Translations under genes and position numbers: made by a program
The notes under the pieces: model-generated
Told to the model about the DNA's origin: nothing
Database searches by the model: none
Seen by the model: only the letters and a program-made list of their open reading frames with translations
Assembly (NCBI RefSeq): GCF_000003815.2
Contig: NC_049983.1
Coordinates: 17,700,746-17,764,745, forward strand
DNA length: 64,000 nt
From: Branchiostoma floridae
Lineage: Eukaryota > Chordata > Leptocardii > Amphioxiformes > Branchiostomatidae
Direction of reading: 5' to 3'
Shown here: positions 8,626-59,549 of the stretch, in pieces
How the letters are laid out: each line of letters opens with the position of its first letter
How positions within the stretch are numbered: the first letter of the stretch is position 1

Positions 8626-8876
8626 CAGCACTTCAAAGAAGCAGAACATACATTTCTTTAGGCCAATAATAATGAGCTACAGGTAACTTAACTAATGAAA
8701 TGATCTATGACAATTGAAGGGTTATCTTGATCATATGGTGTGCCGTAATAGCTAGCTAGTATTTGCCCCAGAAAGAAGAGGTTCTGTGAGTTCAATCCCC
8801 TGACTTGTCTCAATGTTTTGCACTTCAGTGTGCAAAACTTCAGTGTGCAAAAGGCTTTGGTTCCAAACATCCCTTA

Positions 8877-9237
8877 GGCCACACCAATTTAATTTCTTGG
8901 TTCACGGATTCGCTCGCTCCTATTTTTTGGAAAAAAAAATAAAAATAAAAATTACCGCTCAGCAAATTTTCACCATCAATGAAACCATTTGCCAACTTTC
9001 TGGTGTAGCAAACGTAAAAACTGACACTACTTTTGTAATTTTCAATGAACAGGTGCTGTTTCCGTACAGTAATAGTGTTTTTGTACTTTTTTAAGCTGAA
9101 AACTTTTTTTTCTTTATGTTTGGGATTAGCCCTTACCTTTACCCGAACCATTTTACAATTTTTATTTTTATTTCGCCCTTTCGCTCCATATTTTTTATGA
9201 AAAAATCCGTGAACCAAGAAATTAAATTGGTGTGGCC
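8877..9237. mobile_element. Harbinger-like MITE, copy 1
   Basis: TIR GGCCACACCAATTTAATTTC then TTGGTTCACGGATT at both ends, flanked by TTA (8874-8876 and 9238-9240), the PIF/Harbinger target duplication. 361 bp. Confidence 0.85.
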
Positions 9238-9648
9238 TTAGATCAGATGTTTAAATGGAGGTCCAATGATTGAAGAGAGCCACAACTCAAGCGAGTTAAA
9301 GAACCCATCACACTCAGCGAAAAGAGTTGGTTTCCTTTGGCCCTTTCCAGTGTGAGTGGATCAAAACTATTTCAGTCTAAATATCTTACCTTAGAACTTA
9401 CTTAAGCACTCCCAACACATGGGGTCGGGAAAATCGGAGCAAGTCTATTGTGGCCGCTTGCCCTGAGTCCAGCTTTGTTTGCTTTAGTCCGCTCCAAAGG
9501 TACTACAACCTTTAGGAGCGGACCAAAGCGAAGAAGGCTGGACTCCAGGCTCCTGTTGGGCCAGTTAGTCCTCACTCTCGATGAGTGCTAGCTTGTCTCA
9601 GTCAGGAGGTTTCAGAGTGTACAAATGTACAAATGTGTACAAACCTTA

Positions 9649-10003
9649 GGCCACACCAATTTAATTTCTTGGTTCACGGATTTTTTCATAAAAAATATGG
9701 AGCGAGAGGGCGAAATAAAAATAAAAATTGTAAAATGGTTGGGGTAAAGGTAAGGGCTAATCCAAAACATAAAGAATAAAAAGTTTTCAGCTTGAAAAAA
9801 GTACAAAAGACTATTACTGTACAGTAACAGCACCTGTTTGTTGAAAATTACAAAAGTAGTGTCAGTTTTTATGTTTGCTACACCAGAAAGTTGGTGAATG
9901 GTTTCATTTATGGTGAAAATTTGCTGAGTGGTAATTTTTTTTTTTTTTTCCAAAAAATAGGAGCGAGCGAATCCGTGAACCAAGAAATTAAATTGGTATG
10001 GCC
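9649..10003. mobile_element. Harbinger-like MITE, copy 2 (inverted relative to copy 1)
   Basis: Same TIRs and TTA flanks (9646-9648, 10004-10006), interior in opposite orientation. 355 bp. The two copies, 410 bp apart, could form a long intramolecular duplex. Confidence 0.85.
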
Positions 10004-10024
10004 TTAGAATGATAATATATCTAC

Positions 10025-46300: not shown

Positions 46301-49300
46301 CGGCTATCGCTTTAGAAGCCTATAATCTTTTATACTTCTCCAAATGCTTGTTGTTCGTAGCGTTTTATGGTATCGGAGATTCGATCGTGCGGAGAACACT
46401 TCCTGGTATTAGTGCGCTCGATAGCGGTAAAGCGTTTCGGCGCCTGATTACCCAGATCGTGCGTTCTATGTGCGTTTTGGGTGTTTTAGCGCCATCGGAG
46501 CTCGCGGAAAACGTATCGGATAACTTTTTTTCCTTTTTACTCAGTATACAGAAGAAGTCTTGACCTTCATTGCCATATTAGTCATTATCCCAGGAAAACT
46601 CATTTTTTCCATGTAGCGGCCTGTAAAAAATGGCCCCAAATTAGCAATTTTTGGTTGAAAGGCTTATATTTTTGATGTTTTTTACCAAAAATAACATTTC
46701 TACAGAAAATGTCAAATGAGTCTGTCGGTCAGCGACAACACACACTTTTCTATCGGAAACGTTGAATTATCCGGAAAACGATGTTTTGAGAAGCGCTAGT
46801 GCTTTTCTCAGAGACAGTCAAATCGGCCCCAAATCCTAAAAAAAACTCCGAACCGGAACCTTCAGGGGATATTGTGCAATGGGGACATCTTACAGAAATA
46901 TTTGGAATTGCATGATCCATGTTTCATTACTAGGACTGCTGTTTTCATCCATTTAATCTTACTTCAAGAACTCTTCTACCTGTGTGATGGTGACAAATCT
47001 TGTGCCTATATATCATGCTGAAGAATTGCTATAACACTTGAATCATGCTGATTGTAATACAGGATAATTTAGTTTTTTTGTACACAACGAGACAGTGAGC
47101 CAATGTACGCCAAAAAGTATTTACTCAAGCAACTGGATATGGTTTTGGAATCGGTCAGACGTTTCGGATAGTATCCACTATCCTTCGTCAGTGACACTGA
47201 AGTGATCTGGAGGAAACTGAACTTTTATACCCTAACTCTGAATGAAGACAACTTTAGATGTCGAATCGGAGACATTGTAAGACAAGTCACGCTGAAGACA
47301 ATTCGGATACCAACAGGAAACAAAGGTAGGGCAAAGTCAAGCTAGAGACAATTTGAATGGGAAACAAAGCTAAGATACAGTTAATGTAACAGCCAATGTT
47401 TTGGTGACCGTCTGTTACCTTCCTCAGGGCAATACTGACTGGTTCAACTTGTCTAGGTGTCACAGCTGCAGTGTGAAAAAAGTGGCCACAGAAATAGTAT
47501 CAACTCTATGGTTGAGTGCAAAGAAATTTAGTATACAGAACTTTGTTAACTAAGTTAAACTGTTCACAGATGATTGTAATACACTACTTATCCACATACA
47601 TACACTGTTGCACAGAACCTTGCCGCCGCCACGTTCAGCACAGGGAAGACATAGATGATGAACCTGAGCTCCTTGTGTGGCAGGATGGAGTACAACAGAA
47701 CGAAGCCCAGAGCTGGAGCCACAGTCTTGGCTATCCTGGAGTCTAACCACATCCCAGCAGGCACCAGGAGGGTGCTGGCTACCAGGGCACGGGGGATGGC
47801 AGAGTAGAAGTACCACAGAAATGGTTCAGTCTGCACAAGGGGGTGAATGTTAAGGAAATGCCAGAAAATGTCAAAAGGATTCATCACAGAATCTGGGTGG
47901 TTGTTTAAGACAAGTTTGATGGTCCTGTGTAATATGTATAAGAAGGATACACCCCAGTTGGAGCTCTTGTTGAGGATGGTGTTATAGTGCAGCACTGCTC
48001 CCTCAGGCCACAGCAGCTTCTGCCAGAACACAGAGTCTACAGACACAGTCACAGCTGAAAATACAAATAATTCATTAACAATGCTTGTCAATAAATCAGA
48101 AGGGCAACACTGTGATAAATAGTAATACCCATAGCTCTCAAAACTTTCAAAATAGTGTGCAGACCCTTATTCGAGTACACACCCTGTGACAGAACACATA
48201 GAAATTGCACAGCATAACCACAGATACCTACCCAGACACACCACCCCGGCTGGTACACCATGTCTCAGTAGTTCTAACACACCCACTCTCCACAGCATAA
48301 CCACAGATACCTACCCAGACACACCACCCCGGCTGGTACACCATGTCTCAGTAGTTCTAACACACCCACTCTCCACAGCATAACCACAGATACCTACCCA
48401 GACACACCACCCCGGCTGGTACACCATGTCTCAGTAGTGTAAGGAGTGAGAAACACCCCCGTTTAGAGTAGGTCAGTCTGGTGACCCTGAGAGGTCAAGT
48501 TTGCACACGTCACGATAAGCAATACACAGACCAGAGTTTCTTCCCACTTCTGAGTCCAGTCTCTTCAATTCGTATGAGTGTTTACTCCCAGTAAGTCATC
48601 TCTTACATTGGTGGCAGCAGTGTCCGAACCTTCGACCGTCGATAACGCACGTCGTTCTTCATCTGCGCCGGCATAAGCGCTCAACACAACTACGCTGATG
48701 TTCGCCCCCCTCCCACCAGACAGGCGCACGTGACAAATTATTTGAGTTCCTTCGCACGCTTCCTGTCGCCTGTCCGCCACTCCCTGACCAGGTAGGACAC
48801 TGTCTCATTCCCAATCACCGACATCGTGACCTGCCTTCACCATGTCTTACGTTCTTGAGGTGGACTCGGAAGTTTCTTTCCCCAACTACCCCCCCTCCCA
48901 CAGCTCGGCTTCCGTCACACAGGGAGGTCTCTCACCGCAGTTTCCTGGTCCTACTACCTCCGTTCCTGCTGTTATGGCTACCACTACCACCAGGTACATC
49001 TGTGCCCCAGGCCACGGACCAGCTACAACCACCACCAGGTACATCTGTGCCCCAGGCCACGTCCCAGCTACCACCACCACCAGGTACATCTGTGCCCCGG
49101 GCCACGTTCCAGCTACCACCACAAGGTACGTCCGTGCCTCAGGCCTCCACCTCCGCAATGTCTACACAATATTTCCACTACCCATGTCGTGCGCCTGCCG
49201 TCCAGGCACAGCCACCACCAGGCACGTCGTTGCCCCTGACAACTACCTCCACTACTTCTGCGCAGTATCTCCAATACCCATATCGTGCACCTGGTGCTAC

Positions 49301-52300
49301 TCCCCACCCTCGACAGCCGTCCCCGGCCACTCTAACCTCTACATCGACACAGTATCCACAGTATCTCAACTACCACTATAGTGCACCGGCAGTGCCTGTT
49401 CCAGCGGCTACACCCCACCTCAAAACACACTTACCTGACCGCTTCCTTGGCAACGCCACTGAAGACTTCTCTGTCTGGCTTGGTAAATTTGAGGTCTACG
49501 CCGACGCACACCAGTATACCCCTGATGTCCGAGTTCGTATCCTCCCCACGTTTCTCGATGGACCTGCACTAACTTATCTCCAGGGCCTCGACCAGGACGT
49601 GCGCCGTGATTACCCCAAACTCCTTGCGGCCCTGTCACAAGCTTTCAGCCAGGACAGGTATATCTTCACATTCCGACAAGCCTTAGCTCAGCGTCGGCGC
49701 CAACCAGGTGAGTCCTTCCTGGTGTTCGCTACAGAGCTCACAAGCCTGGTCAAGCGTGCTTACCCGACATACAACGAGCCGGCCATCCTGGGCCAGACCC
49801 TCCAGCTTTTCATCCAGGGAGTTGACCCTGCCACCCGACTCCGGGTGATGGAGAGCGGCGCTCCCACCATCAACGAGGCTGTTGAGATCGCCACCCGGCA
49901 TGAACAGGCAGTGGCTGTCAACGCCCAGCAGGACACTTGTGAGAATACCGTGAACTCTGTCCAGCGGGACGATTTACAAATGGCAGTGGCCGGCCTGACT
50001 GAACAGGTCCACATTCTCACTACCCTCCTCCAATGCCAGCAGCTGTCTCAGACATCCAACTCCCGGGGCCGTTCCGTCTCACCTTTCCGTCCGCCATCCA
50101 GCGACCGTTCTCGCTCGCCATACCGCTCCCCGGCTAACAGCCGTCCACGTTCCCCATTCCGGTCGTCGGACAACAACCGGCCCACCTCCCCGTACCGACC
50201 CGCGGATCATCGCTCCCGCTCACCGTACCGTTCCTCCACTAACGATCGTCCACGCTCACCTTACAGCGAACCAGCCAACATCCGTGGCCGATCCCCATCT
50301 CGTTCGTCGGGAAGTGACCGCCCCAGCTCCCCATCCCGTCAATACGCTGACTCTCGTTCCCGTTCGCCATACCGCCAGTCGCCTTCTGACCACATCCGCT
50401 CACACTCCTCTCCCAGAACCGTCCGATTTGCCGAGCAGGGAAACGACCTCCCTCTGATGCCGCGGGCCGGGCATCAGTAGACCATACGCAGGCCCCCACC
50501 CAGCCACCCTCCAGCAGTTCCACGCCCACATCTCACATTTCCGCCATCCTGGAGGGATTAGCCACGAACACACTTATCGATACAGGATCCGCCATTTCTC
50601 TTATTAGCGAACAACTGTATAACTCCATCCCACATCTGCGCTCCCAACAACTACGCAAACAGTTTACGCCTGCACAGTCGGTCACCGGTCAAGTGTTGGA
50701 CACTGTTGGAGTTATCGACCTGCATGTCCGTCTAGGCGACTGCGAAACAACCCACCCCGTCCATGTTGTCCGCAATGCAGATCAACCTGCCCTTCTCGGT
50801 TGGGATTTCTGCATCTCCCAAAGTGCCATTCTCAACGCTGGTGCGGGTACCCTGACTATCGGTGGACAATGCCTACCACTCCTGACAGCATCTCAACTAC
50901 GTCCCACAGTTTGTCATGCGTTGGTTTGTCGCACCACTTTAGTACCCCCGCGTTCCGTCATGACGATACCAGTGCTGCTTACACCCCGCATGGCAACACA
51001 ACCCATTCCCAATGATTACACTGGGTTACTGGAACCACGCTCCTACGCTGACAAAGGTCTTGCCATTGCCCGAACGGTTGCCACTGTCAACAATTCTGAA
51101 ACCATATGTGAAGTGACGAACACCTCGGACGAGCCGGTCACACTGAAAGCAGCCATGCCACTGGGCTCATTCCTACCTTTAGAGAATGACGACATTGCAG
51201 AAGAAGATCACCTTGCCACAACCGCTACCCCACGGGTAAGACACCACCCACCTCTCCCCAGATGAGGCACGCCAACTCACAGACACCCTCCAACGCTACT
51301 CCGATGTCTTCAGCCGCCATCCAGGAGACAGGGGGCGCACGTCCCTGGCACAACATCGCATCTTTACCCATGATGACCGACCAATCAAACAACGGCCACA
51401 TAGGATGCCGGTCCACCGTCAAGCCGAGGTCCAACGCCAGGTCACAGAGATGCTCGAGGCGGGAGTCATCGAGCCCAGTCAGAGTCCATGGGCCTCTCCA
51501 GTTGTCCTGGTTCGGAAGAAAAACGGTACCCATCGATTCTGTGTGGACTATCGCAAACTGAATATGGCAACGGTAAAAGACGCCCACCCACTTCCGCGTA
51601 CGGATGACACGATTGACGCACTGTCAGGTGCAGCATATTTTACCACACTAGACATGACTGCTGGGTACTGGCAGGTGCCCATCCACCAAGACGACAGAGA
51701 GAAGACCGCTTTCACGACCAGCCGCAGTTTGTATCACTTCACTGTCATGCCGTTCGGACTTACCAACGCTCCGTCCACGTTTCAACGGTTGATGGAACTC
51801 CTCCTAGCGGGATTAGACTGGAGATCATGTCTGGCCTACCTGGATGACATCATCCTCTTTTCCCGCACCTTTGATGAACATCTGAAGATCCTGGAGGAAG
51901 TCTTGTCGCGTTTCCGTTCAGCCAACTTGAAACTCAATGCTGACAAGTGCAAGTTCGCACAGCCAGAAGTTCGCTTTCTTGGCCATGTGGTCTCGCGACA
52001 TGGCGTCCAACCAGATCCGACCAACACGGATAAGGTCAGCAACTGGCCTACCCCGACATCAACCGCCCATGTACGATCCTTCCTCGGACTGGCGTCATAC
52101 TATCGGAAATTCATACGCAACTTCGCCAAGATTGCTGAGCCTCTTCAGGTCCTGACCAGAAAGGGCTCGTCTTTTACCTGGTCGGCAGATTGCCAGACAG
52201 CCTTCGAAACCCTACGCGAAGAGTTGACATCTCCACCTGTATTGGCATATCCGGACTTCGACTTACCATTCGCACTACATACGGATGCGTCGGACGTCGC

Positions 52301-55300
52301 TGTCGGGGCAGTGCTATCCCAGACCACTGATCTAGGTGAGCAAGTGATCGCATACGCCAGTCGTACACTGTCTGCACAGGAGAGGCGATGGGCTACATTC
52401 GACCGAGAAATGTGGGCCATTGTGTGGAGCGTCCGCTACTTTCGCACTTACCTGGCAGGACGGCGCTTTACTGTCTTGACTGACCACAAGCCCCTACTGG
52501 GGTGGTCCAATAAACTCACTGCACACGACCCAACCGGCAGGCGTAGTCGATGGGCCGTAGAACTGTCTACCTACAAGTTCGACCTTGATTACCGTGCAGG
52601 AAAAGCCAACAGCAATGCTGATGCCCTCACTCGCCAAGGAACTCCTGTGACCGCCGTTGACCAACCACCGAGCCGACCCAAGGACCCTGTGGCTGAACAG
52701 TCGTCGCCATCACAGAATGACCCTTCTGAAAGTCAACCGCCACTCCTGCCGGGCGACCGACCAGTTGATCACCGTTCCTCACCCGTGGGCGCCATTGATC
52801 AACCGTCGACCCTAACCAGCGATCCTTCGACAGAACAAACAGCAACAACGCGGAGTGACCCGCCGGATGAATCCTTGTCACCCCGTAATCTACGACGGGC
52901 ACAAGCAGCAGACCCGGACATATCGGAAGTCCTGCGGTGGAAACGTCGACGACGGGGCCGGCCCCCATTTGACGCCGTCCAACGTCGCGGACGCTGCCTC
53001 AAATCGTTGTGGCACCAGTACCCAAATCTGATCGTTAGGAGCGGCATTCTATACCGTAGATGGAAACCCAACTACCGCGTCCTCCACCAGCGTGTGGCGC
53101 CCAAGTCTTTAATACCTACCATTCTGAAGGAACTGCACAATGGACCCTTGTCAGGCCATTTGGGCCCCTCCAAAACACTGCAACGCGTATATATCCGATT
53201 TTATTGGCCTGGAATGACACAACAGGTCAAGAAGTGGTGCAGGGCATGTGTCAAATGTGCAACACGGTCAACACCAACGCCTTCGGCTCGTGCGCCCTTA
53301 GTGCCGATCCGTGTATGTCGCCCCTTTGAGAAGGTAGCCATGGATCTGACCGAACTACCTACCTCGAAACGTGGCCATCGCTATTGCCTGGTGCTACAGG
53401 ATTTCTTCACCAAGTATGTCAATGCATATCCCCTGACGCGCCAAGATGCCTCCTCAGTAGCCCATGTCATTTTCAAGGACTACATCCGTGAGCATGGCGT
53501 GCCCTCTGGCTTACATTCTGACAAAGGCCGCCAGTTTGAAGCCGACACCATGAAAGCCCTATACGACTCCTTCGGCATCGATAAAAGCCGTACAACTTCG
53601 TACCACCCGTAAGGAGACGGGTTAGTCGAACGTTTCAATCGAACGCTGAAGCAAATGCTCTCCAAGTATGTTTCCAGTAACGGTGATGACTGGGATGACC
53701 ATCTCCCGCACGTCCTGCTCGCTTACAATACATCGGTGCACGCCTCAACAGGTTTCACACCGTTCTTCCTGGCCCACGGGAGGGAAGCGAACTTACCCGC
53801 AGACGTAGCACTCGGTGGAAACCCACAAACGTCACCCCAGTCAGCGTCATCGTATGCCCGATCATTGACGACTAGTCTCCGGACAGCTTTTAAGCAGGTG
53901 CGACAAAATGCACAGCGGGCAAGCCACAAGCAAAAGTCAGCCTATAACGCCACTGTGAGACATACACCATATCGTGCGGGCGACAGAGTCTGGCTAGATG
54001 ACCCCACTACTAGCAGACAGAAGCTCAAGCCTGGTTGGAAGGGACCCTACACTGTTGTCGAGCGGCTCCAACAGGGCAACGAACCAGGAGTCACGTATCG
54101 TATAGAACATGATGCCTCGCACAAAATAGAGATTGTACACTACAACCGACTCAAGCGATGCGATTCGCCGAACCGCCGACAACAAGCGGGGGTTGCACAG
54201 CGCGCGCCGGATCGTCACAATAATGTCGCACCAAACTCACCGGCCCAAGGGAGAGTTCCTGCACACCCAGCTCCTGCCAACCACGCAACAACAACAAGAG
54301 GCCGCAGGGTGCGTGCACCCACGAGATATGAAGACTTCGTGATGGACTGAGCTACTTGGATTAATTCATCCCTTGAGGAACAAGGGTTTCTTGCGGAACT
54401 CACTACAGTGTTGGATTAGTTCACCCCTTGATTGACAAGGGTCTTCCGCAGGACATACTGCAGCACCGGCAGGAGAACTCACTACAGTGTCGGATTAGTT
54501 CATCCCTTGATGGACAAGGGTCTCCCGCAGGACATACTGCATCGCTGGATTAATTCACCCCTTGATTGACAAGGGTCTTCTGTGGGACAACTTCCGATAT
54601 TTGGACCCGGACTCACCGTGGATCTACTCACAGAACTGTAACACGCAGCCGGACTTACTCCAGTTTATAACAGTTCCAGTTGTCTATCGTTATAAGCCGT
54701 ATTTTTTTTATATATATATCTATCTCATGTTGAACGTAGATTAGCGACATCGTTCATTTAGTTGGTACATGTTATGGTTGTTAATTGTTCACTTCAGAAG
54801 AAGTGTCGTTTCGTAGGGGGGAAGAATGTAAGGAGTGAGAAACACCCCCGTTTAGAGTAGGTCAGTCTGGTGACCCTGAGAGGTCAAGTTTGCACACGTC
54901 ACGATAAGCAATACACAGACCAGAGTTTCTTCCCACTTCTGAGTCCAGTCTCTTCAATTCGTATGAGTGTTTACTCCCAGTAAGTCATCTCTTACAGTAG
55001 TTCTAACACACCCACTCTCCACAGCATAACCACAGATACCTACCCAGACACACCACCCCGGCTGGTACACCATGTCTCAGTAGTTCTAACACACCAAGTC
55101 TCCTAGTGCCCAGCTCATGCAGTAAGATCAGCCCCAGGAACAGACACAGCTCAGACCGGAAAACGATAATCGCGAATCCCGACTGCCAGATGAATGAACC
55201 GTGCTTCCCTGTCAACCAGGAACTCAGAGCAAGAAGAACTGGGTAAATGCAAAAAAACCATCAGGACAATATTAAAGTGTCATCTGTGTAACTGATATAA

Positions 55301-56774
55301 AATGCATTATCTCAGACCTACCCAATTTATTCTACGACTCATGTGACGTATACAAATGTACATGTACATTTTGGTATTGCTGTTTTCTCTATGGAATTGC
55401 CAAGCAATTTGTATTGACATAAAGTATGTAATGCAGTCACATTTGAGGTAAGGGTGTTCCCCACTTACCCACCGACAGTGCGAACACATTGGGCAGAGGT
55501 CTGGTGATGTAGAACATGAAGTGGAACTGTGTGGCTGTCAGGAGGACCAGCATCGTCCCCACATCTGAACCAAACTTCTTACTGACGGCACGACGGAAGG
55601 TGGAGAAACCATACAGCACACACAGGCCTAGGCACCCACGCACTGCGGACAAGAAAAAACAGAATTAATTCATGTAATTTTGTAGTGGTTTTATTTTGCA
55701 ATTGAAATAGCCTAGCAGTACATAGCAATACATGTTGTCCATGGTGTCATCAATTCACGGTAGAGTGACTAGTAAGACTAAGATGGTAAAGGTCCCTTTT
55801 GCAGTTGAAATTCTGTAGCACAATATCTATGTAATAGGATACAGATATTTGCAGAGTCATCATTTTGTGTCAAGAGTTTACCCCAAAAAATAAAACCACT
55901 ACAACTAATTCAATATTCAAACTTTCACAGTATGCACTTTTTCTTTGTGGCGTGGCACTGCTCAACCGTGGGGTCCTGGAAAACTTTTACTCTTTCAACT
56001 TTCCCTCCCTTTACTTTATTCTAGAGATACACAGACATACCTAAGTACTGTGCGATGAACTTGTTCTCCCATATCAGCTGTGTCAGGGCCACGAATGGTG
56101 CTGCCAGTCCTGAGATGAACAGTGGACCGACGAAGGTACGTGGAACAACTCCGGGAAACTCATGGTGATCGTACTGAGGAAACATTTAGAAAATAGAATT
56201 ACAGTAAAACTGTACTTGTAAACTTTTCATATGTGACATTATACTAGCTTACTTTTCAAACTAGTATACGCTATAAGTTACAAACAACGTAACTGAATTT
56301 TTTACCCAAGGTGATTTTTTACCACATGGTGGAGCAACATGATCAGCAAACTATATCAAAGAAATGTCAAAACTGATGAACACCAGTCTCTGTAATGCAA
56401 TGCATTACTGACCATTTGATTGATTAAAAAAGATTGCAATAAACCACGTGATTGGAATAAAAATTGTAGAGTAGAGTAGAATTTACCTGTGTCTATTATA
56501 GTATAAGGTTATCTAAGGCAAAGACTGCACATGCACATTGTATCTAGATAAAGATGCAGCTAATCTTCAAGCTGACCCTTATAGTCCAGGCCCCGCTAAG
56601 ATTACTTTGACTGGTGCATAAAATAGTAACGTTAATACTCACCTTTTCCAGGTTTTGCCGGTGAAATAGGATGTCGTGAGTTGCTTGTACGTTAAAACTC
56701 TCTTCCACTTTCGTATAGGGGCAGGCTACGAGGTGTAAGAACGCCACCACGCCCAACAAAACGTCTGCGATCAT
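43102..56774 (-). CDS. ALG12: ALG12, dolichyl-P-Man:Man7GlcNAc2-PP-dolichol alpha-1,6-mannosyltransferase, 9 exons
   Basis: ER multipass GT-C (GT22) enzyme adding the eighth mannose to the lipid-linked N-glycan precursor from dolichol-phosphate-mannose. Exons 56774-56643, 56173-56041, 55642-55469, 55238-55044, 48054-47951, 47830-47604, 46004-45835, 44063-43988 and 43342-43102 sum to 1452 nt, 483 aa (human about 488), all phases consistent. Signatures: [17 protein letters not shown] in the first lumenal loop with the catalytic acidic residues; [65 protein letters not shown]. The start ATG at 56774 immediately precedes the first membrane helix, as in human. Intron 4 is about 7 kb because a retrotransposon sits inside it in opposite orientation. 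It shares a divergent promoter with CCDC51. Confidence 0.96.
43988..44063 (-). CDS. ALG12: ALG12 exon 8
   Basis: 76 nt, phase 1 to 2. Encodes [20 protein letters not shown] and LNSNW. Acceptor tgtgcag, donor GGAG|gtacca. Confidence 0.95.
44640..44668. repeat. (TA)n microsatellite
   Basis: TATATATA run in ALG12 intron 7; a long plus-strand ORF reads through it but looks spurious. Confidence 0.85.
45835..46004 (-). CDS. ALG12: ALG12 exon 7
   Basis: 170 nt, phase 2 to 1. Encodes [20 protein letters not shown] and [20 protein letters not shown]. Acceptor ccatag, donor ACAG|gtaaaa. Confidence 0.95.
46198..46863. mobile_element. Inverted-repeat DNA element in ALG12 intron 6
   Basis: Ends AAGGTTCCGGTTCGGA and TCCGAACCGGAACCTT form 16-bp terminal inverted repeats around about 665 bp. 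No transposase. No clear target-site duplication, so superfamily unassigned. Confidence 0.65.
47080..47460. mobile_element. Possible retroelement 3' fragment
   Basis: Contains GTTTCGGATAGTATCCACTA then TCCTTCGTCAGTG, and near 47400 a second GTGACCGTCTGTTACCTTCC then TCAGGG: a paired motif pattern seen in Penelope-like element ends. No reverse transcriptase remains; assignment tentative. Confidence 0.3.
47604..47830 (-). CDS. ALG12: ALG12 exon 6
   Basis: 227 nt, phase 0 to 2. Begins [20 protein letters not shown]; contains the family hallmark [19 protein letters not shown]. Three overlapping GT sites occur at the end; the phase-2 one (GT|gtatgt) fits exon 7. Confidence 0.94.
47951..48054 (-). 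CDS. ALG12: ALG12 exon 5
   Basis: 104 nt, phase 1 to 0. Encodes [17 protein letters not shown] and NKSSNWG. Acceptor ttttcag; donor GGT|gtatcc, chosen because it alone keeps frame with exon 6. Confidence 0.93.
48206..48437. repeat. 83-bp minisatellite, left part (copies 1-3)
   Basis: One partial (48206-48271) and two full copies (48272-48354, 48355-48437) of an 83-bp unit containing CCCCGGCTGGTACACCATG. On the minus strand each unit equals the last 40 nt of ALG12 exon 4 plus its donor and the first intron bases. A fourth copy lies beyond the inserted retrotransposon at 55001-55083. Confidence 0.93.
48438..48607 (+). repeat. 5' LTR
   Basis: 170 bp, TGTAAGGAGTGAG to CATCTCTTACA. Matches the 3' LTR base for base on reading. 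Confidence 0.95.
48609..48622 (+). other. Candidate primer-binding site
   Basis: TGGTGGCAGCAGTG starts one base after the 5' LTR, the usual position and TGG start for a tRNA primer site. The tRNA was not identified. Confidence 0.55.
48842..50480 (+). CDS. gag: Retrotransposon Gag (frame break near the N terminus)
   Basis: The Ty3-type capsid region is clear in the frame ending at TAG 50478-50480: [36 protein letters not shown] and [19 protein letters not shown]. The first ATG with good context (48842) is in another frame, which stays open to 49381; the first in-frame ATG is 49158. The two frames cross in a Pro-rich zone of 45-bp (15-codon) repeats around 48990-49135, so a 1-nt lesion or assembly error near 48980 is likely. 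The C-terminal 130 residues are an Arg-Ser repeat region ([18 protein letters not shown]) in place of a CCHC zinc knuckle, which is absent. Confidence 0.85.
48985..49135 (+). repeat. 45-bp tandem repeat in gag
   Basis: Four units starting near 48991, 49036, 49081 and 49123, each with CAGGTACATCTGTGCCCC or a close variant. The 15-codon period keeps all frames open. Confidence 0.85.
50438..50477 (+). promoter_or_regulatory. Programmed -1 ribosomal frameshift signal (gag to pro)
   Basis: Heptamer G_GGA_AAC at 50438-50444 lies in the gag frame as X_XXY_YYZ. After a 9-nt spacer, CTGATGCC (50454-50461) pairs perfectly with GGCATCAG (50470-50477) around an 8-nt loop. The gag stop follows at once (50478-50480). 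A -1 slip here enters exactly the protease frame, which is open from this point. Confidence 0.85.
50444..51265 (+). CDS. pro: Retroelement aspartic protease region
   Basis: Minus-one frame relative to gag. Active site DTGS at 50579-50590 in the context [13 protein letters not shown]; later PALLGWDF, typical of Ty3 proteases. Processes the polyprotein. It ends at TGA 51263-51265 in a Pro-rich stretch where RT would normally continue in the same frame, so the frame is broken or shifted here. Confidence 0.85.
   Translation, partial: RPPSDAAGRASVDHTQAPTQPPSSSSTPTSHISAILEGLATNTLIDTGSAISLISEQLYNSIPHLRSQQLRKQFTPAQSVTGQVLDTVGVIDLHVRLGDCETTHPVHVVRNADQPALLGWDFCISQSAILNAGAGTLTIGGQCLPLLTASQLRPTVCHALVCRTTLVPPRSVMTIPVLLTPRMATQPIPNDYTGLLEPRSYADKGLAIARTVATVNNSETICEVTNTSDEPVTLKAAMPLGSFLPLENDDIAEEDHLATTATPRVRHHPPLPR
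51240..53612 (+). pseudogene. pol: Pol: reverse transcriptase, RNase H, integrase N-terminal half
   Basis: Opens after a TAA at 51237 in a frame +1 to protease; the two overlap only over 51240-51262. Begins [16 protein letters not shown] motifs: [40 protein letters not shown] and the catalytic YLDD. RNase [16 protein letters not shown], ending [11 protein letters not shown]. An unusual Pro/Ser-rich linker of about 100 residues (52640-52900) follows. Integrase: HHCC zinc finger ([10 protein letters not shown]...CRACVKC), then MDLTELP and HSDKGRQFE of the catalytic core. The frame stops at TAA 53610-53612 inside the conserved YHP...GDG motif, a nonsense change. Confidence 0.92.
53613..54350 (+). 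pseudogene. pol: Integrase C-terminal part, cut off by the internal stop
   Basis: Same frame directly after the stop: [16 protein letters not shown] with the third catalytic Glu, then [15 protein letters not shown] and a GPY/F-type module ([16 protein letters not shown]). A basic tail ends at TGA 54348-54350. No chromodomain. Confidence 0.9.
54356..54600 (+). repeat. Four tandem hairpin units in the retrotransposon 3' region
   Basis: Four units starting GGATTA(A/G)TTCA, each with stem CCCTTG / CAAGGG around a 5-nt loop (AGGAA, ATTGA, ATGGA, ATTGA). The loops vary while the stems are constant. Confidence 0.85.
54813..54826 (+). other. Polypurine tract
   Basis: Purine-rich GTAGGGGGGAAGAA directly before the 3' LTR, the normal plus-strand primer site. 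Confidence 0.7.
54827..54996 (+). repeat. 3' LTR
   Basis: 170 bp, same start, end and sequence as the 5' LTR; followed by the target duplicate GTAG. Confidence 0.95.
55001..55083. repeat. 83-bp minisatellite, copy 4 (contains the real exon 4 donor)
   Basis: Same unit as 48272-48437, now separated from the others by the LTR element; it directly abuts unique exon 4 sequence. Four identical donor contexts therefore follow one another in the pre-mRNA. Confidence 0.93.
55044..55238 (-). CDS. ALG12: ALG12 exon 4
   Basis: 195 nt, phase 1 to 1. Starts [16 protein letters not shown] and ends [14 protein letters not shown]. The last 40 nt and the splice donor (CTGG|gtaggt) belong to the first unit of an 83-bp tandem array. 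Confidence 0.95.
55469..55642 (-). CDS. ALG12: ALG12 exon 3
   Basis: 174 nt, phase 1 to 1. Contains [13 protein letters not shown] and [18 protein letters not shown], the conserved TRxLPN element. Donor GTGG|gtaagt. Confidence 0.96.
56041..56173 (-). CDS. ALG12: ALG12 exon 2
   Basis: 133 nt, phase 0 to 1. Encodes [20 protein letters not shown] and the next helix. Acceptor ctcag, donor TTAG|gtatgt. Confidence 0.95.
56643..56774 (-). CDS. ALG12: ALG12 exon 1
   Basis: 132 nt, 44 codons, phase 0 out. Start codon, first helix ([15 protein letters not shown]) and the GT22 motif [14 protein letters not shown]. Donor AAG|gtgagt. Confidence 0.96.
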
Positions 56775-57062
56775 CGTTGAAAAAGAGATCCAGATTCAGC
56801 TGACGTGAAAACTTGCACGCTTCCATCAGCTGGTGGGTCAAAGTTCAATCTTGTCACTTTCACGCATGCTTTGGAGCGTCCCTACCGAAGGAGTACAAAA
56901 GAAGCAATGTGATTGGGTACTCTACATAATTTACCTACAAAATGTCCAATCACAGAAGCTGTTATAAAGAATATGTGGTTTTCGAAACCAAAATGGCGGC
57001 ATGACCCGACCAGAATTTTTCACATTCCCTTTCATTCTACGATATAAAATTTTAGTGTGAAG
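56775..57062. promoter_or_regulatory. Divergent promoter between ALG12 and CCDC51
   Basis: The start codons are 288 bp apart, head to head. A YY1-type motif (AAAATGGCGGC, 56990-57000) lies 62 bp before the CCDC51 ATG, and CCAAT boxes occur at 56945-56950 (TCCAATCAC) and inverted near 56910 (GTGATTGG). No TATA box: a typical housekeeping bidirectional promoter. Confidence 0.65.
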
Positions 57063-57209
57063 ATGTTGCGTTTTCGTTCAGTTCGGGAGTGGCACAAGCC
57101 CTTCCGCGGCTACTCGACTGCTCTAACAGGAAACAGAGCTGTAGACGACGCGTTAGAGAAGATCACAAAAGGCCGGATCGGCGGCTGGCTGGCGAGCTAT
57201 GAGCAGTTC
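57063..57209 (+). CDS. CCDC51: CCDC51 first coding segment
   Basis: 49 codons, presequence to EQF. Stops being homologous to CCDC51 exactly at 57210, where the transposon inverted repeat begins. The frame continues 38 codons into the element, to a TAA at 57324-57326. Confidence 0.9.
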
Positions 57210-59549
57210 GGGTTGGCGGAAACGGCCGCCCGGTCGGTCGGCGGAAACGGCTGCCCGGTCCGGTCTGGAGGTTGGTTTTGGGGGTTTCGAGCAACAAGAT
57301 GGCTTGCTATCGCAGCAGTGATCTAAGTGCATTTCTCGTGTAGGCTGACCCTACAACTTACAGTAGCACTAATATCGTAAACATAACCGTAATTTCGGAA
57401 ATTCGAAAACGCAAACACGGCGTAATTTCGAACTTGCACACATTTTCACACGATCTGAGACTGAATGGGATTATGCTGATGCTTTGACCACGAACACATT
57501 TGTTAAATCTTTGGTTAAATCTTTATTATCTTTATCATCTTATCATTTCCGACATGTGAGAATAGTATCGTGATCAATCAAAGAATTGCAGTGGGGGAAA
57601 TCTTCAGACACTGGTGAAATAATCGCCACATGGGTGAAACTACGGCGGAGCTGTTTTCGTGTGAAGTATGTGAAAACATCGTACATAATCAATGTATAAT
57701 TGACTACATTAGTTTAAACCAGAACCTGACACACAAAAATTGAATCCATGCGTTAGTAAATGTACATTTTAGTATTAATTTAACTAAATTTGAATTATTT
57801 TACAGTTCTTAGAGATAGTTTCTCCTCGGACACGTCAGACAGCTCGGCACGGTAGTGTTGTCAAAATTGATTGATTTTGTCGCCGGCGCCCGGCACATAT
57901 AGATCAAAGGACCGCCACATAGATCAAAGGACCGCCACTCTGTACAACCCTAAGCGCTTGACGTAGCGAACTTCTGACGTTCTGTACTGGGGGACGTTCT
58001 AATAGCAGCAGCTGGGGACAATCTTACCAAGAAATGTCAAATTAATTTTTTTTTCAAAAGGCCAGCTTCCTTTGAACATGTAGCAACATCTAACAACCGT
58101 TATGGAATATCTAAGTAGGTATTTTGTTTACTTCACTTACACTGCTGTATGCAATACTCGAAACCCCCAAAACCAACCTCCGGACCGGACCGGGCAGCGG
58201 TTTCCGCCGACCGGCCGGGCAGCCGTTTCCGCCAACCCTGAGCAGTTCGTGGGCATCACGGAAGTCAAACATGCACAGGGGAAGGTCACACAGGTAAATG
58301 GCAAATTCAGACCGTTTTTTAACGAACCACATTTCCTCTTGGCTTTTTCTGATTTTCTGGTCAAGTGTCTTGTTTGAATTTTACAAGGTGAAAGTTGTGA
58401 AACATTTATAATATTGCAATCAATTGTGTATGGAATGCTTATGATTTCCCCATGCACTGTATGATGCAGACTTGCCAAAATCTTCTTGAAGAAGAAAAAA
58501 AAAAAACCGTGTCAGCAATATCAGTTCTTGTCTGAACCATTGGTGCTTTATACAAGGCATATCTTGTTTGTGTCACATAATTTGACATTTCACCACAATG
58601 CATCGCATCTTGCTGCACATGCACATTTAGATCTGTGAACATCCTTGAAGTTGACCCTTATTACACTCCTACATCTTTCTAGGCTGAAGAGAACTTCATG
58701 AATTCAAGGAAACAGGTGAAGCAGCTCAAGGAGGAGGTCGAGTCTCTGCAACAGGACATGACCACCTGTCGGGACAAGATGGACCGCGTGAACCGGGGCG
58801 AACCACGGTACCTGGAGCTCGCCACGGAAGAACACAACCTCATACAGGAGCTGCAGAAGGCCAGGGCCAAGTATGGGCTGTTGGAGGACCAGGAACGGGA
58901 CAATTTCGCGCTGCTGCAAGCCGCCGTCCGATCCAGCCACGAGAAGGAACGGGCGCGGACGGAGAGGACTAAGAACTGGTCCATCATCGGCTCTGTCACC
59001 GGCGCCATCATCGGAATTATCGGGTCCACGGCTGTCAATCGCAGCAGAATGAAGGAGCTCAGGTCGCTCATACTGGACACTAAGGGCAACGGTGGGATAA
59101 CTCCTGACATTGCAGAGAAAATAGCCTCGACGGGAGAACAATACAAGCAGATCCAAGGATCCCTACAGGAAGTCAAAACTCTTCTCAATAACTCAGAAGC
59201 AACAAGTGCAGATGTACCAATAGGAGATGTCAAACATTTAGCTACGTTACTTAGAGAACAGGACAAGAAATTTGATGCAAGGATACAATCAATTCTTCAT
59301 GCAATAAAAGAAAGCGATGTGGCAATAAACGCACAGTTAGATAGGATAGGGAAGCTAGTGTCTAGCAGGGTTAGTGCAGGAGGCACTGCTGCGGTAGGGG
59401 TGTCGGAAGAGGTGCAGGAATTGATTGATGCCACACAGAAGAAACTGGAATGGCAGATCCGAATCAACACCCTCTCCACGGTAGTGTTTGTCTACGCAGC
59501 CTTTGCTCTGACGCTACCTATCCTGCAGAATATCTTTCGAGGCTCATGA
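57063..59549 (+). CDS. CCDC51: CCDC51 (MITOK), mitochondrial ATP-sensitive K+ channel subunit
   Basis: Inner-mitochondrial-membrane coiled-coil protein. Coding segments 57063-57209, 58249-58293 and 58683-59549 would give 352 aa (human about 411). The N terminus MLRFRSVREWHKPFRGYST is Arg-rich with RGYS, a mitochondrial presequence. Then YEQF and VGITEVKHAQGKVTQAE, a coiled coil, ESLQQDMTTCRDKMDRV, the family core PRYLELATEEHNLIQE and SHEKERARTERTKNWS, the first membrane helix (IIGSVTGAIIGIIGSTA), and a second near the C terminus (TVVFVYAAFALTLPIL). Between the first two segments a 1029-bp transposon interrupts what was a continuous exon, so the mature product of this allele is uncertain. The track-like GTG six bases upstream is not the start; ATG 57063 is. 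Confidence 0.93.
57210..58238. mobile_element. MULE-like inverted-repeat transposon inserted in a CCDC51 coding exon
   Basis: 81-bp terminal inverted repeats (57210-57290 and 58158-58238) match at 77 of 81 positions, starting GGGTTGGCGGAAACGG. They are flanked by a perfect 10-bp duplication TGAGCAGTTC (57200-57209, 58239-58248) that is itself CCDC51 coding sequence. Long TIRs with a 9-11 bp duplication fit the Mutator superfamily. 1029 bp, no transposase. Each TIR contains two tandem copies of a CGGAAACGGCTGCCCGGTC-like motif, and the centre has a 22-bp tandem repeat near 57900-57945. Confidence 0.9.
58239..58293 (+). CDS. CCDC51: CCDC51 second coding segment
   Basis: Begins with the duplicated TGAGCAGTTC, then VGITEVKHAQGKVTQ; donor CAG|gtaaat, phase 0. 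Acceptor AGs are available in the duplication itself (TGAG, GCAG) or in the right TIR at 58221-58222. Confidence 0.88.
58683..59549 (+). CDS. CCDC51: CCDC51 third coding exon
   Basis: 867 nt, 288 codons plus TGA. Acceptor tttctag. Contains the coiled coil, both membrane helices and the conserved HEKERARTERTKNWS motif. Confidence 0.96.
   Translation, partial: AEENFMNSRKQVKQLKEEVESLQQDMTTCRDKMDRVNRGEPRYLELATEEHNLIQELQKARAKYGLLEDQERDNFALLQAAVRSSHEKERARTERTKNWSIIGSVTGAIIGIIGSTAVNRSRMKELRSLILDTKGNGGITPDIAEKIASTGEQYKQIQGSLQEVKTLLNNSEATSADVPIGDVKHLATLLREQDKKFDARIQSILHAIKESDVAINAQLDRIGKLVSSRVSAGGTAAVGVSEEVQELIDATQKKLEWQIRINTLSTVVFVYAAFALTLPILQNIFRGS

What the first reader, a model, noticed from the sequence alone, without database searches (positions are those of the whole stretch)
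57200..58248. Transposon inside a CCDC51 coding exon: intron birth or broken allele
Removing the 1029-bp element and one TGAGCAGTTC copy restores a continuous frame, YEQF directly followed by VGITEV, matching the uninterrupted vertebrate motif RYEEFVGLNEV. The element therefore entered an exon. The exon frame stops inside it (TAA 57324-57326), so the gene works only if the element is spliced out. In-frame GT/AG pairs exist: donor at 57271 (GGAG|gttggt) with acceptor after 58222 (gggcag), or donor at 57318 (GCA|gtgatc) with the AGs supplied by the target duplication (58242, 58245). Each would leave extra residues encoded by the TIRs. This is how introner-type transposons make introns; the alternative is a null allele.
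Basis: partly seen in the sequence, partly recalled or inferred. Interest (0 to 1): 0.93.

Follow-up and report, generated by a model that had tools for sequence, protein, structure and literature searches.

The report
Transposon-disrupted CCDC51 allele in amphioxus
A one-kilobase "jumping gene" sits inside the first coding exon of a mitochondrial protein gene in a lancelet genome; an undamaged version of the gene is known from what appears to be the same species, so this is most likely an ordinary broken gene copy and not a newborn intron.

Summary
A 1,029-bp DNA transposon (57210-58238; 82-nt TIRs, 95% complementary; 10-bp TSD) interrupts the first coding exon of CCDC51, probably in the Branchiostoma floridae reference assembly. 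The frame from the ATG stops inside it at TAA 57324-57326.

I located 36 family copies (a lower bound). Of 32 delimited at both ends, 25 have exact 9-10 bp TSDs and 6 more match within one mismatch. This fits a Mutator-type element lacking its transposase.

Intron birth has no positive support. A B. floridae UniRef protein reads straight through the site, no GT-AG or GC-AG intron removes the insert exactly, and in-element frame-keeping splice pairs are weak: 52 of 200 simulated inserts offer one as good.

The window gene is the only CCDC51 found in this assembly. The published B. floridae assembly merged two haplotypes of one animal (passages). The simplest reading: that animal was heterozygous and the reference kept the broken allele. 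The rest of the allele is open and conserved, so the insertion is probably recent. No RNA was available, so splicing is not excluded.

The parts
57063..57209 (+). CCDC51 first coding exon, 5' part (MLRFRSV...ASYEQF), interrupted after F49; includes the first TSD copy
57200..57209 (+). target site duplication, copy 1 (TGAGCAGTTC)
57210..58238 (.). 1,029-bp non-autonomous DNA transposon, MULE-type by TIR and TSD
57210..57291 (.). 5' terminal inverted repeat, 82 nt, containing a 25-nt tandem duplication
58157..58238 (.). 3' terminal inverted repeat, 82 nt, 95% complementary to the 5' one
57324..57326 (+). TAA: stop of the CCDC51 frame inside the element
   Evidence: open frame 57048-57326
57271..57272 (+). 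best-scoring GT donor in the element before the stop (4.9; native CCDC51 donor 9.3); in frame with AG at 58222 (0.3)
57318..57319 (+). weak GT donor (0.6), in frame with AG at 58245 (4.0)
58102..58104 (+). ATG inside the element in frame with the downstream CCDC51 exon (open frame 58084-58377); possible start of an N-terminally altered protein if a promoter lay in the element (inference)
58239..58248 (+). target site duplication, copy 2
58249..58293 (+). CCDC51 first coding exon, 3' part (VGITEVKHAQGKVTQ), native donor at 58294
58683..59549 (+). CCDC51 second coding exon, open to its stop codon

Best explanation
A non-autonomous Mutator-type (MULE) DNA transposon, moved by a transposase encoded elsewhere, inserted by cut-and-paste between codons 49 and 50 of the first coding exon of CCDC51 (mitochondrial potassium channel subunit MITOK) and duplicated 10 bp of target. 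Transcripts from this allele run into the left TIR and meet a stop after 87 codons, upstream of the native exon junction, so the mRNA should be degraded by nonsense-mediated decay or give a useless 87-aa peptide. The allele is thus a loss-of-function (or strongly hypomorphic) insertion polymorphism. The sequenced animal most likely carried it opposite an intact allele, and haplotype merging left the broken one in the reference. Shown: element, TSD, stop, family, single locus found, intact protein labelled B. floridae. Inferred: MULE transposase, NMD, species and assembly identity, heterozygosity of this animal.
For: Structure and family: (36 copies located; 32 delimited; exact TSD of 9 bp in 17, of 10 bp in 8; 6 more within one mismatch; 1, L036, unclear). 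Premature stop. Uninterrupted B. floridae protein P0001, 352 aa, and uninterrupted proteins of two other amphioxus species. Exact splicing-out impossible. One CCDC51 locus found in the assembly (13 of 13 candidates scored, 2 matches, both the window's own exons). Simakov et al. 2020 (PMC7269912, passages seen) say the chromosome-scale B. floridae assembly re-used the shotgun data of one diploid animal, with divergent haplotypes assembled apart and then merged by HaploMerger2. The genome held here fits: 513 Mb; the 15 of contigs C1-C19 whose lengths I saw are 17.1-35.3 Mb, while C153 is 0.14 Mb; fetched regions hold 100-N gaps and gaps of other sizes (withheld stretches would also read N). Amphioxus heterozygosity is 3.2-4.2% (PMC12500494, abstract and passages). 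A second exon insertion by the family: L027.
Against: The rest of the allele is open: no other stop or frameshift in 352 codons, and all 63 columns invariant in the nine compared proteins are kept. The relative-rate test shows no significant excess of changes (9 derived in the window, 5 in P0001, 5 unresolved, p = 0.42); at 311 columns identical in B. lanceolatum (two) and B. belcheri the window differs at 18 and P0001 at 14. A gene dead for the whole terminal branch of the element (27 private substitutions in 966 columns) would stay open in only 1.5% of simulations, so the insertion must be much younger than that bound, or the gene is still under selection. The window and P0001 differ by 19 of 352 residues, which is much for two alleles (judgement, no control).
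Confidence: 0.85

Rival explanations
1. Nascent intron: the element is spliced out of the pre-mRNA with GT/AG sites in its TIRs or in the TSD, leaving some TIR-encoded residues, so the allele still makes CCDC51.
For: 62 frame-keeping GT-AG introns exist, for example 57237/58245 (10 extra residues), 57258/58245 (17), 57271/58222 (29) and 57318/58245 (37). The rest of the coding sequence is open and conserved. Introners with TIRs and TSDs are known, including one that adds four residues (PMC9860276, passages). A MITE in a gained intron of amphioxus PRHOXNB is mentioned in PMC5802833 (passage).
Against: In those four pairs the donors score 0.7, 1.9, 4.9 and 0.6 and the acceptors 4.0, 4.0, 0.3 and 4.0, against 9.3/8.6 for the native CCDC51 intron; four ALG12 donors score 2.8-12.1 and five ALG12 acceptors 6.6-10.0, so one native donor is as weak. 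Higher-scoring AGs in the element (58060, 8.5; 57343, 7.2) are followed by in-frame stops. The best in-element pair is matched or beaten by 52 of 200 simulated inserts. Folding predicts a long TIR-TIR stem that would bury most of these sites (no shuffled control). A search for TIR-encoded peptides among proteins of about 127-404 aa found none. Exact removal is impossible.
Confidence: 0.07
2. Promoter or start-codon swap: transcription from inside the element uses ATG 58102, in frame with the downstream exon, giving CCDC51 with 46 new N-terminal residues.
For: The frame is open from 58084 through the 3' TIR into VGITEV, with G at -3 and G at +4 around the ATG (sequence).
Against: No promoter evidence was sought or seen. 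The native N-terminus would be lost (inference). Chance open frames of this size are common (one search lists many).
Confidence: 0.04
3. Assembly artefact: the element was placed here by a mis-join or by merging of haplotypes.
For: The published B. floridae reference was made by haplotype merging (passages).
Against: Perfect 10-bp TSD around a complete element whose relatives have the same ends and TSD size; no N gap anywhere in the window.
Confidence: 0.03

Closest known systems
Non-autonomous Mutator-like elements (MULE-type MITEs)
   Same: Long TIRs, 9-10 bp TSDs, no transposase frame seen, length variants (930-2,510 bp among 32 delimited copies)
   Different: No autonomous copy with these TIRs was found, so the transposase family is inferred from TSD and TIR only
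Introners (TE-derived introns, PMC9860276, passages seen)
   Same: TIR + TSD element inside a coding exon; candidate AG sites partly in the TSD
   Different: No spliced transcript known, no set of copies shown to act as introns, no exact removal
MITE LanceletTn-2 in a gained intron of amphioxus PRHOXNB (mentioned in PMC5802833, passage seen)
   Same: Amphioxus, MITE, intron question
   Different: There an intron is reported; here none is shown. Whether the two elements are related could not be tested: the LanceletTn paper (PMC1458432) is not held. The reference number given for the claim points to a paper whose title concerns another gene, so the primary source was not checked

Membership tests
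Non-autonomous Mutator-like element (MULE) | Target site duplication of 9-11 bp (size range recalled) | tested here: met
   Exact TSD of 9 or 10 bp in 25 of 32 delimited copies (17 and 8); 6 of the other 7 within one mismatch; 1 (L036) unclear
Non-autonomous Mutator-like element (MULE) | Long terminal inverted repeats | tested here: met
   82 nt, 95% complementary; the same ends in the delimited relatives
Non-autonomous Mutator-like element (MULE) | Mobilised by a MULE transposase sharing the TIRs | tested here: inconclusive
   27 MULE-domain (PF10551) matches in the genome, none at one of the 36 family places (by position; the nearest is about 205 kb away on C9). The TIR-only search did not complete (11 attempts)
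Non-autonomous Mutator-like element (MULE) | No transposase gene in the element itself | tested here: met
   No long frame in the window copy. In nine longer or partial loci no frame exceeded 170 aa; these were judged by length and eye, not searched against a library
Introner | The element is spliced out of mRNA | not testable with these tools
   No RNA data available
Introner | Splice sites at or near the element ends that restore the mRNA with little or no added sequence | tested here: not met
   Exact removal impossible; in-element pairs that keep VGITEV are weak and the four named ones add 10-37 residues. Some known introners do add residues, so this lowers the claim and does not exclude it
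Introner | Many copies of the family sit as introns in genes | tested here: inconclusive
   2 of 32 delimited copies lie in recognisable coding exons (window; L027). 30 of the 31 non-window empty-site frames had no Pfam match over cut-off. Short exons without a Pfam domain, and copies inside ordinary introns, would not be seen

The most novel reading that the evidence does not exclude
A polymorphic, very young intron caught at birth in a chordate: the MULE-type insertion in CCDC51 is spliced (at least partly) through TIR and TSD sites, so the insertion allele still makes a protein with a short TIR-encoded insert, while the empty allele segregates beside it.
Probability: 0.07. Interest if true: 0.75.

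Novelty: new member of a known kind. Interest (0 to 1): 0.24.

Why it matters
Mostly as a caution: if the reading is right, the B. floridae reference haplotype carries a broken CCDC51 although the sequenced animal had an intact allele, so gene models and gene-loss claims at this locus would mislead. It also gives a filled/empty allele pair in a highly heterozygous chordate where the splicing fate of a fresh exon insertion could be measured directly. The element family itself appears ordinary.

Tried and rejected
Relaxed selection as proof of a dead allele: rejected, since 9 against 5 derived residues is not significant and the window allele keeps all 63 invariant columns. An intact second CCDC51 copy in this assembly: not found. 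RefSeq annotation as evidence on splicing: the ALG12 control returned a B. lanceolatum representative of a cluster of 8 and could not show whether RefSeq B. floridae proteins are in the database, so the absence of a RefSeq hit is not used. Length of the empty-site frame as a mark of an exon: not useful alone, since 12% of random positions in the window's own flanks have a frame at least as long; homology was needed. Exon preference of the family: 2 of 32 gives no sign of one, but the expected share was not computed. Pfam screen of empty-site frames: 8 of 31 non-window frames (two of them, L011 and L030, cut short), the remaining 23 and those two in full; one over cut-off (L027, Thyroglobulin_1); weak matches below cut-off for L020, L036 and the cut L011 frame. 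The autonomous element: not found. One search was a faulty script (an extra stop codon in the test sequence); one search replaces it. The indel rate used (4 in 966) I counted by eye from the gap table. The splice-site weights are recalled general metazoan values, not trained on amphioxus. The simulated inserts are first-order Markov sequences without TIRs; 20 of 200 had no frame-keeping pair. NCBIfam gave only matches below cut-off and PDB none for CCDC51. A paper search with amphioxus and Mutator terms found nothing; no claim is made that the element family is unpublished, since Repbase and the LanceletTn paper could not be consulted.

Full report
What is there. The window lies at G000:C5:17700746-17764745 of a 513-Mb genome. 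On the + strand, CCDC51 starts at ATG 57063. Its first coding exon is interrupted after F49 by a 1,029-bp element (57210-58238) with 82-nt terminal inverted repeats, 95% complementary, and a perfect 10-bp direct repeat TGAGCAGTTC on both sides. The exon resumes at 58249, ends at a good donor at 58294, and joins a second coding exon 58683-59549. Read from the ATG, the frame enters the left TIR and stops at TAA 57324-57326. The joined flanks encode a 352-residue protein that aligns without a gap at the site to B. floridae P0001 (95% identity), B. lanceolatum P0002 and P0004 (89 and 88%), B. belcheri P0003 (89%), three hemichordates and two vertebrates.

What the element is. The genome search found 140 matching pieces, which I grouped by position into 36 places; only 40 of 151 first-look candidates were scored, so this is a lower bound. 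I fetched 34 regions, one holding two copies; with the window copy that makes 36. Both ends could be set for 32; four (L024, L033, L035, L037) could not. The 32 range from 930 to 2,510 bp. With the ends fixed at the TIR termini, 17 have an exact 9-bp and 8 an exact 10-bp TSD, six more match over 9-10 bp with one mismatch, and one (L036) is unclear. Long TIRs with 9-10 bp TSDs point to Mutator-like elements (recalled family feature). No transposase-like frame was seen in nine longer or partial loci, judged by length and eye. MULE domains exist in the genome at 27 places, none at a family place. A TIR-only search, which might have found an autonomous partner, did not complete in 11 attempts.

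Is it a newborn intron? An intron removing exactly 1,039 nt would need GT...AG in register around the TSD. Going base by base from 57195 to 57215, no GT-AG or GC-AG pair exists. P0001 therefore comes from an allele without the insert, not from exact splicing. In-frame GT-AG pairs that keep the frame open do exist, 62 in all. The four with the highest scores use the native acceptor at 58682 and would delete the conserved VGITEVKHAQGKVTQ stretch or more. Among pairs that keep VGITEV, 57237/58245, 57258/58245, 57271/58222 and 57318/58245 add 10, 17, 29 and 37 residues. Their donors score 0.7, 1.9, 4.9 and 0.6 and their acceptors 4.0, 4.0, 0.3 and 4.0, against 9.3 and 8.6 for the native CCDC51 intron, 12.1, 8.3, 8.9 and 2.8 for four ALG12 donors, and 6.6-10.0 for five ALG12 acceptors in the same window. 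One native ALG12 donor (2.8) is thus as weak as some candidates. Better acceptors inside the element (58060, 8.5; 57343, 7.2) are followed by in-frame stops. Of 200 simulated inserts of the same dinucleotide make-up, 52 offered a frame-keeping pair at least as good and 20 offered none. So the existence of such pairs is expected by chance. Folding predicts a long TIR-TIR stem that would bury most candidate sites (naked RNA, no shuffled control at this length). A search for TIR-encoded peptides in six frames among predicted proteins of about 127-404 aa found none at E up to 1; this is weak negative evidence.

Broken allele. The search of the whole assembly found no other CCDC51: 13 of 13 candidates were scored and both matches are the window's exons; the one stop counted there lies in the intron acceptor just before exon 2 (sequence). 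The intact protein P0001 is labelled B. floridae in UniRef. Simakov et al. 2020 (PMC7269912; passages seen) state that the chromosome-scale B. [quoted passage not shown] they report 19 chromosomes. The genome here fits: 513 Mb; the 15 of contigs C1-C19 whose lengths I saw are 17.1-35.3 Mb and C153 is 0.14 Mb; there are 8 N runs in 254 kb of fetched regions, three of exactly 100 and five of other sizes, though withheld stretches would also read N. That P0001 and the window are the two alleles of that one animal is an inference from this. Against it, the two differ at 19 of 352 residues, which is much for alleles. Amphioxus heterozygosity of 3.2-4.2% (PMC12500494, abstract and passages) makes filled/empty pairs expected.

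How old. Aligned with four close relatives, the window copy differs by 3.9-7.6% and has 27 private substitutions in 966 columns. If the gene had been dead for all of that branch, only 1.5% of simulated coding sequences would stay open; for a half, a quarter and a tenth of the branch the figures are 13, 35 and 64%. The real sequence is open and keeps all 63 invariant positions. The derived-residue count, 9 in the window lineage against 5 in P0001 with 5 unresolved, is not significant. So the insertion is either much younger than its branch, or recombination or selection has kept the allele clean. This is the main observation that fits the intron reading as well as it fits a recent null allele.

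Family behaviour. Empty-site frames were screened for all 31 non-window delimited copies. One, L027, exceeded a Pfam cut-off (Thyroglobulin_1, E 2.9e-15). Its element lies inside an exon with an acceptor-like CACCACAG before and GTATGT after it. So 2 of 32 copies lie in recognisable exons, and none is shown to serve as an intron; copies inside ordinary introns could not be told from intergenic ones. In a survey of 3,325 eukaryotic genomes introners were found, among animals and land plants, in only two animal groups (PMC9860276, passages).

Verdict. An ordinary non-autonomous MULE-type insertion in a coding exon, most likely a segregating loss-of-function allele that became part of the reference haplotype. 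Intron birth remains possible only if RNA shows splicing; I give it about 7%.

Noticed in passing
L027 (G000:C13:12768614-12769899): A second family member (1,286 bp, 10-bp TSD) inside a Thyroglobulin_1-domain exon: another exon-disrupting copy in the same assembly.
   Followed up: partly
window 48183-55103: Ty3/gypsy-like gag-pol frames (48699-54350) between repeats of 98-99% identity, with tandem 83-mers at one end, lying between ALG12 exons. Named by eye, observed only.
   Followed up: no
window 56772-57065: ALG12 (minus strand) and CCDC51 (plus strand) are head to head with under 300 bp between their start codons, suggesting a shared promoter region.
   Followed up: no
window 8937-9241 and 9645-9949: 305-nt inverted repeat, 92% complementary, within a larger inverted-repeat structure 8873-10007: perhaps another TIR-type element.
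   Followed up: no
L010 site and L028, L024, L035 interiors: The empty-site frame of L010 resembles sequence inside longer relatives, so that copy seems to be nested in another repeat (by eye).
   Followed up: no
window 58102-58239: The 3' part of the element is open in frame with CCDC51 from an ATG with a fair start context.
   Followed up: partly
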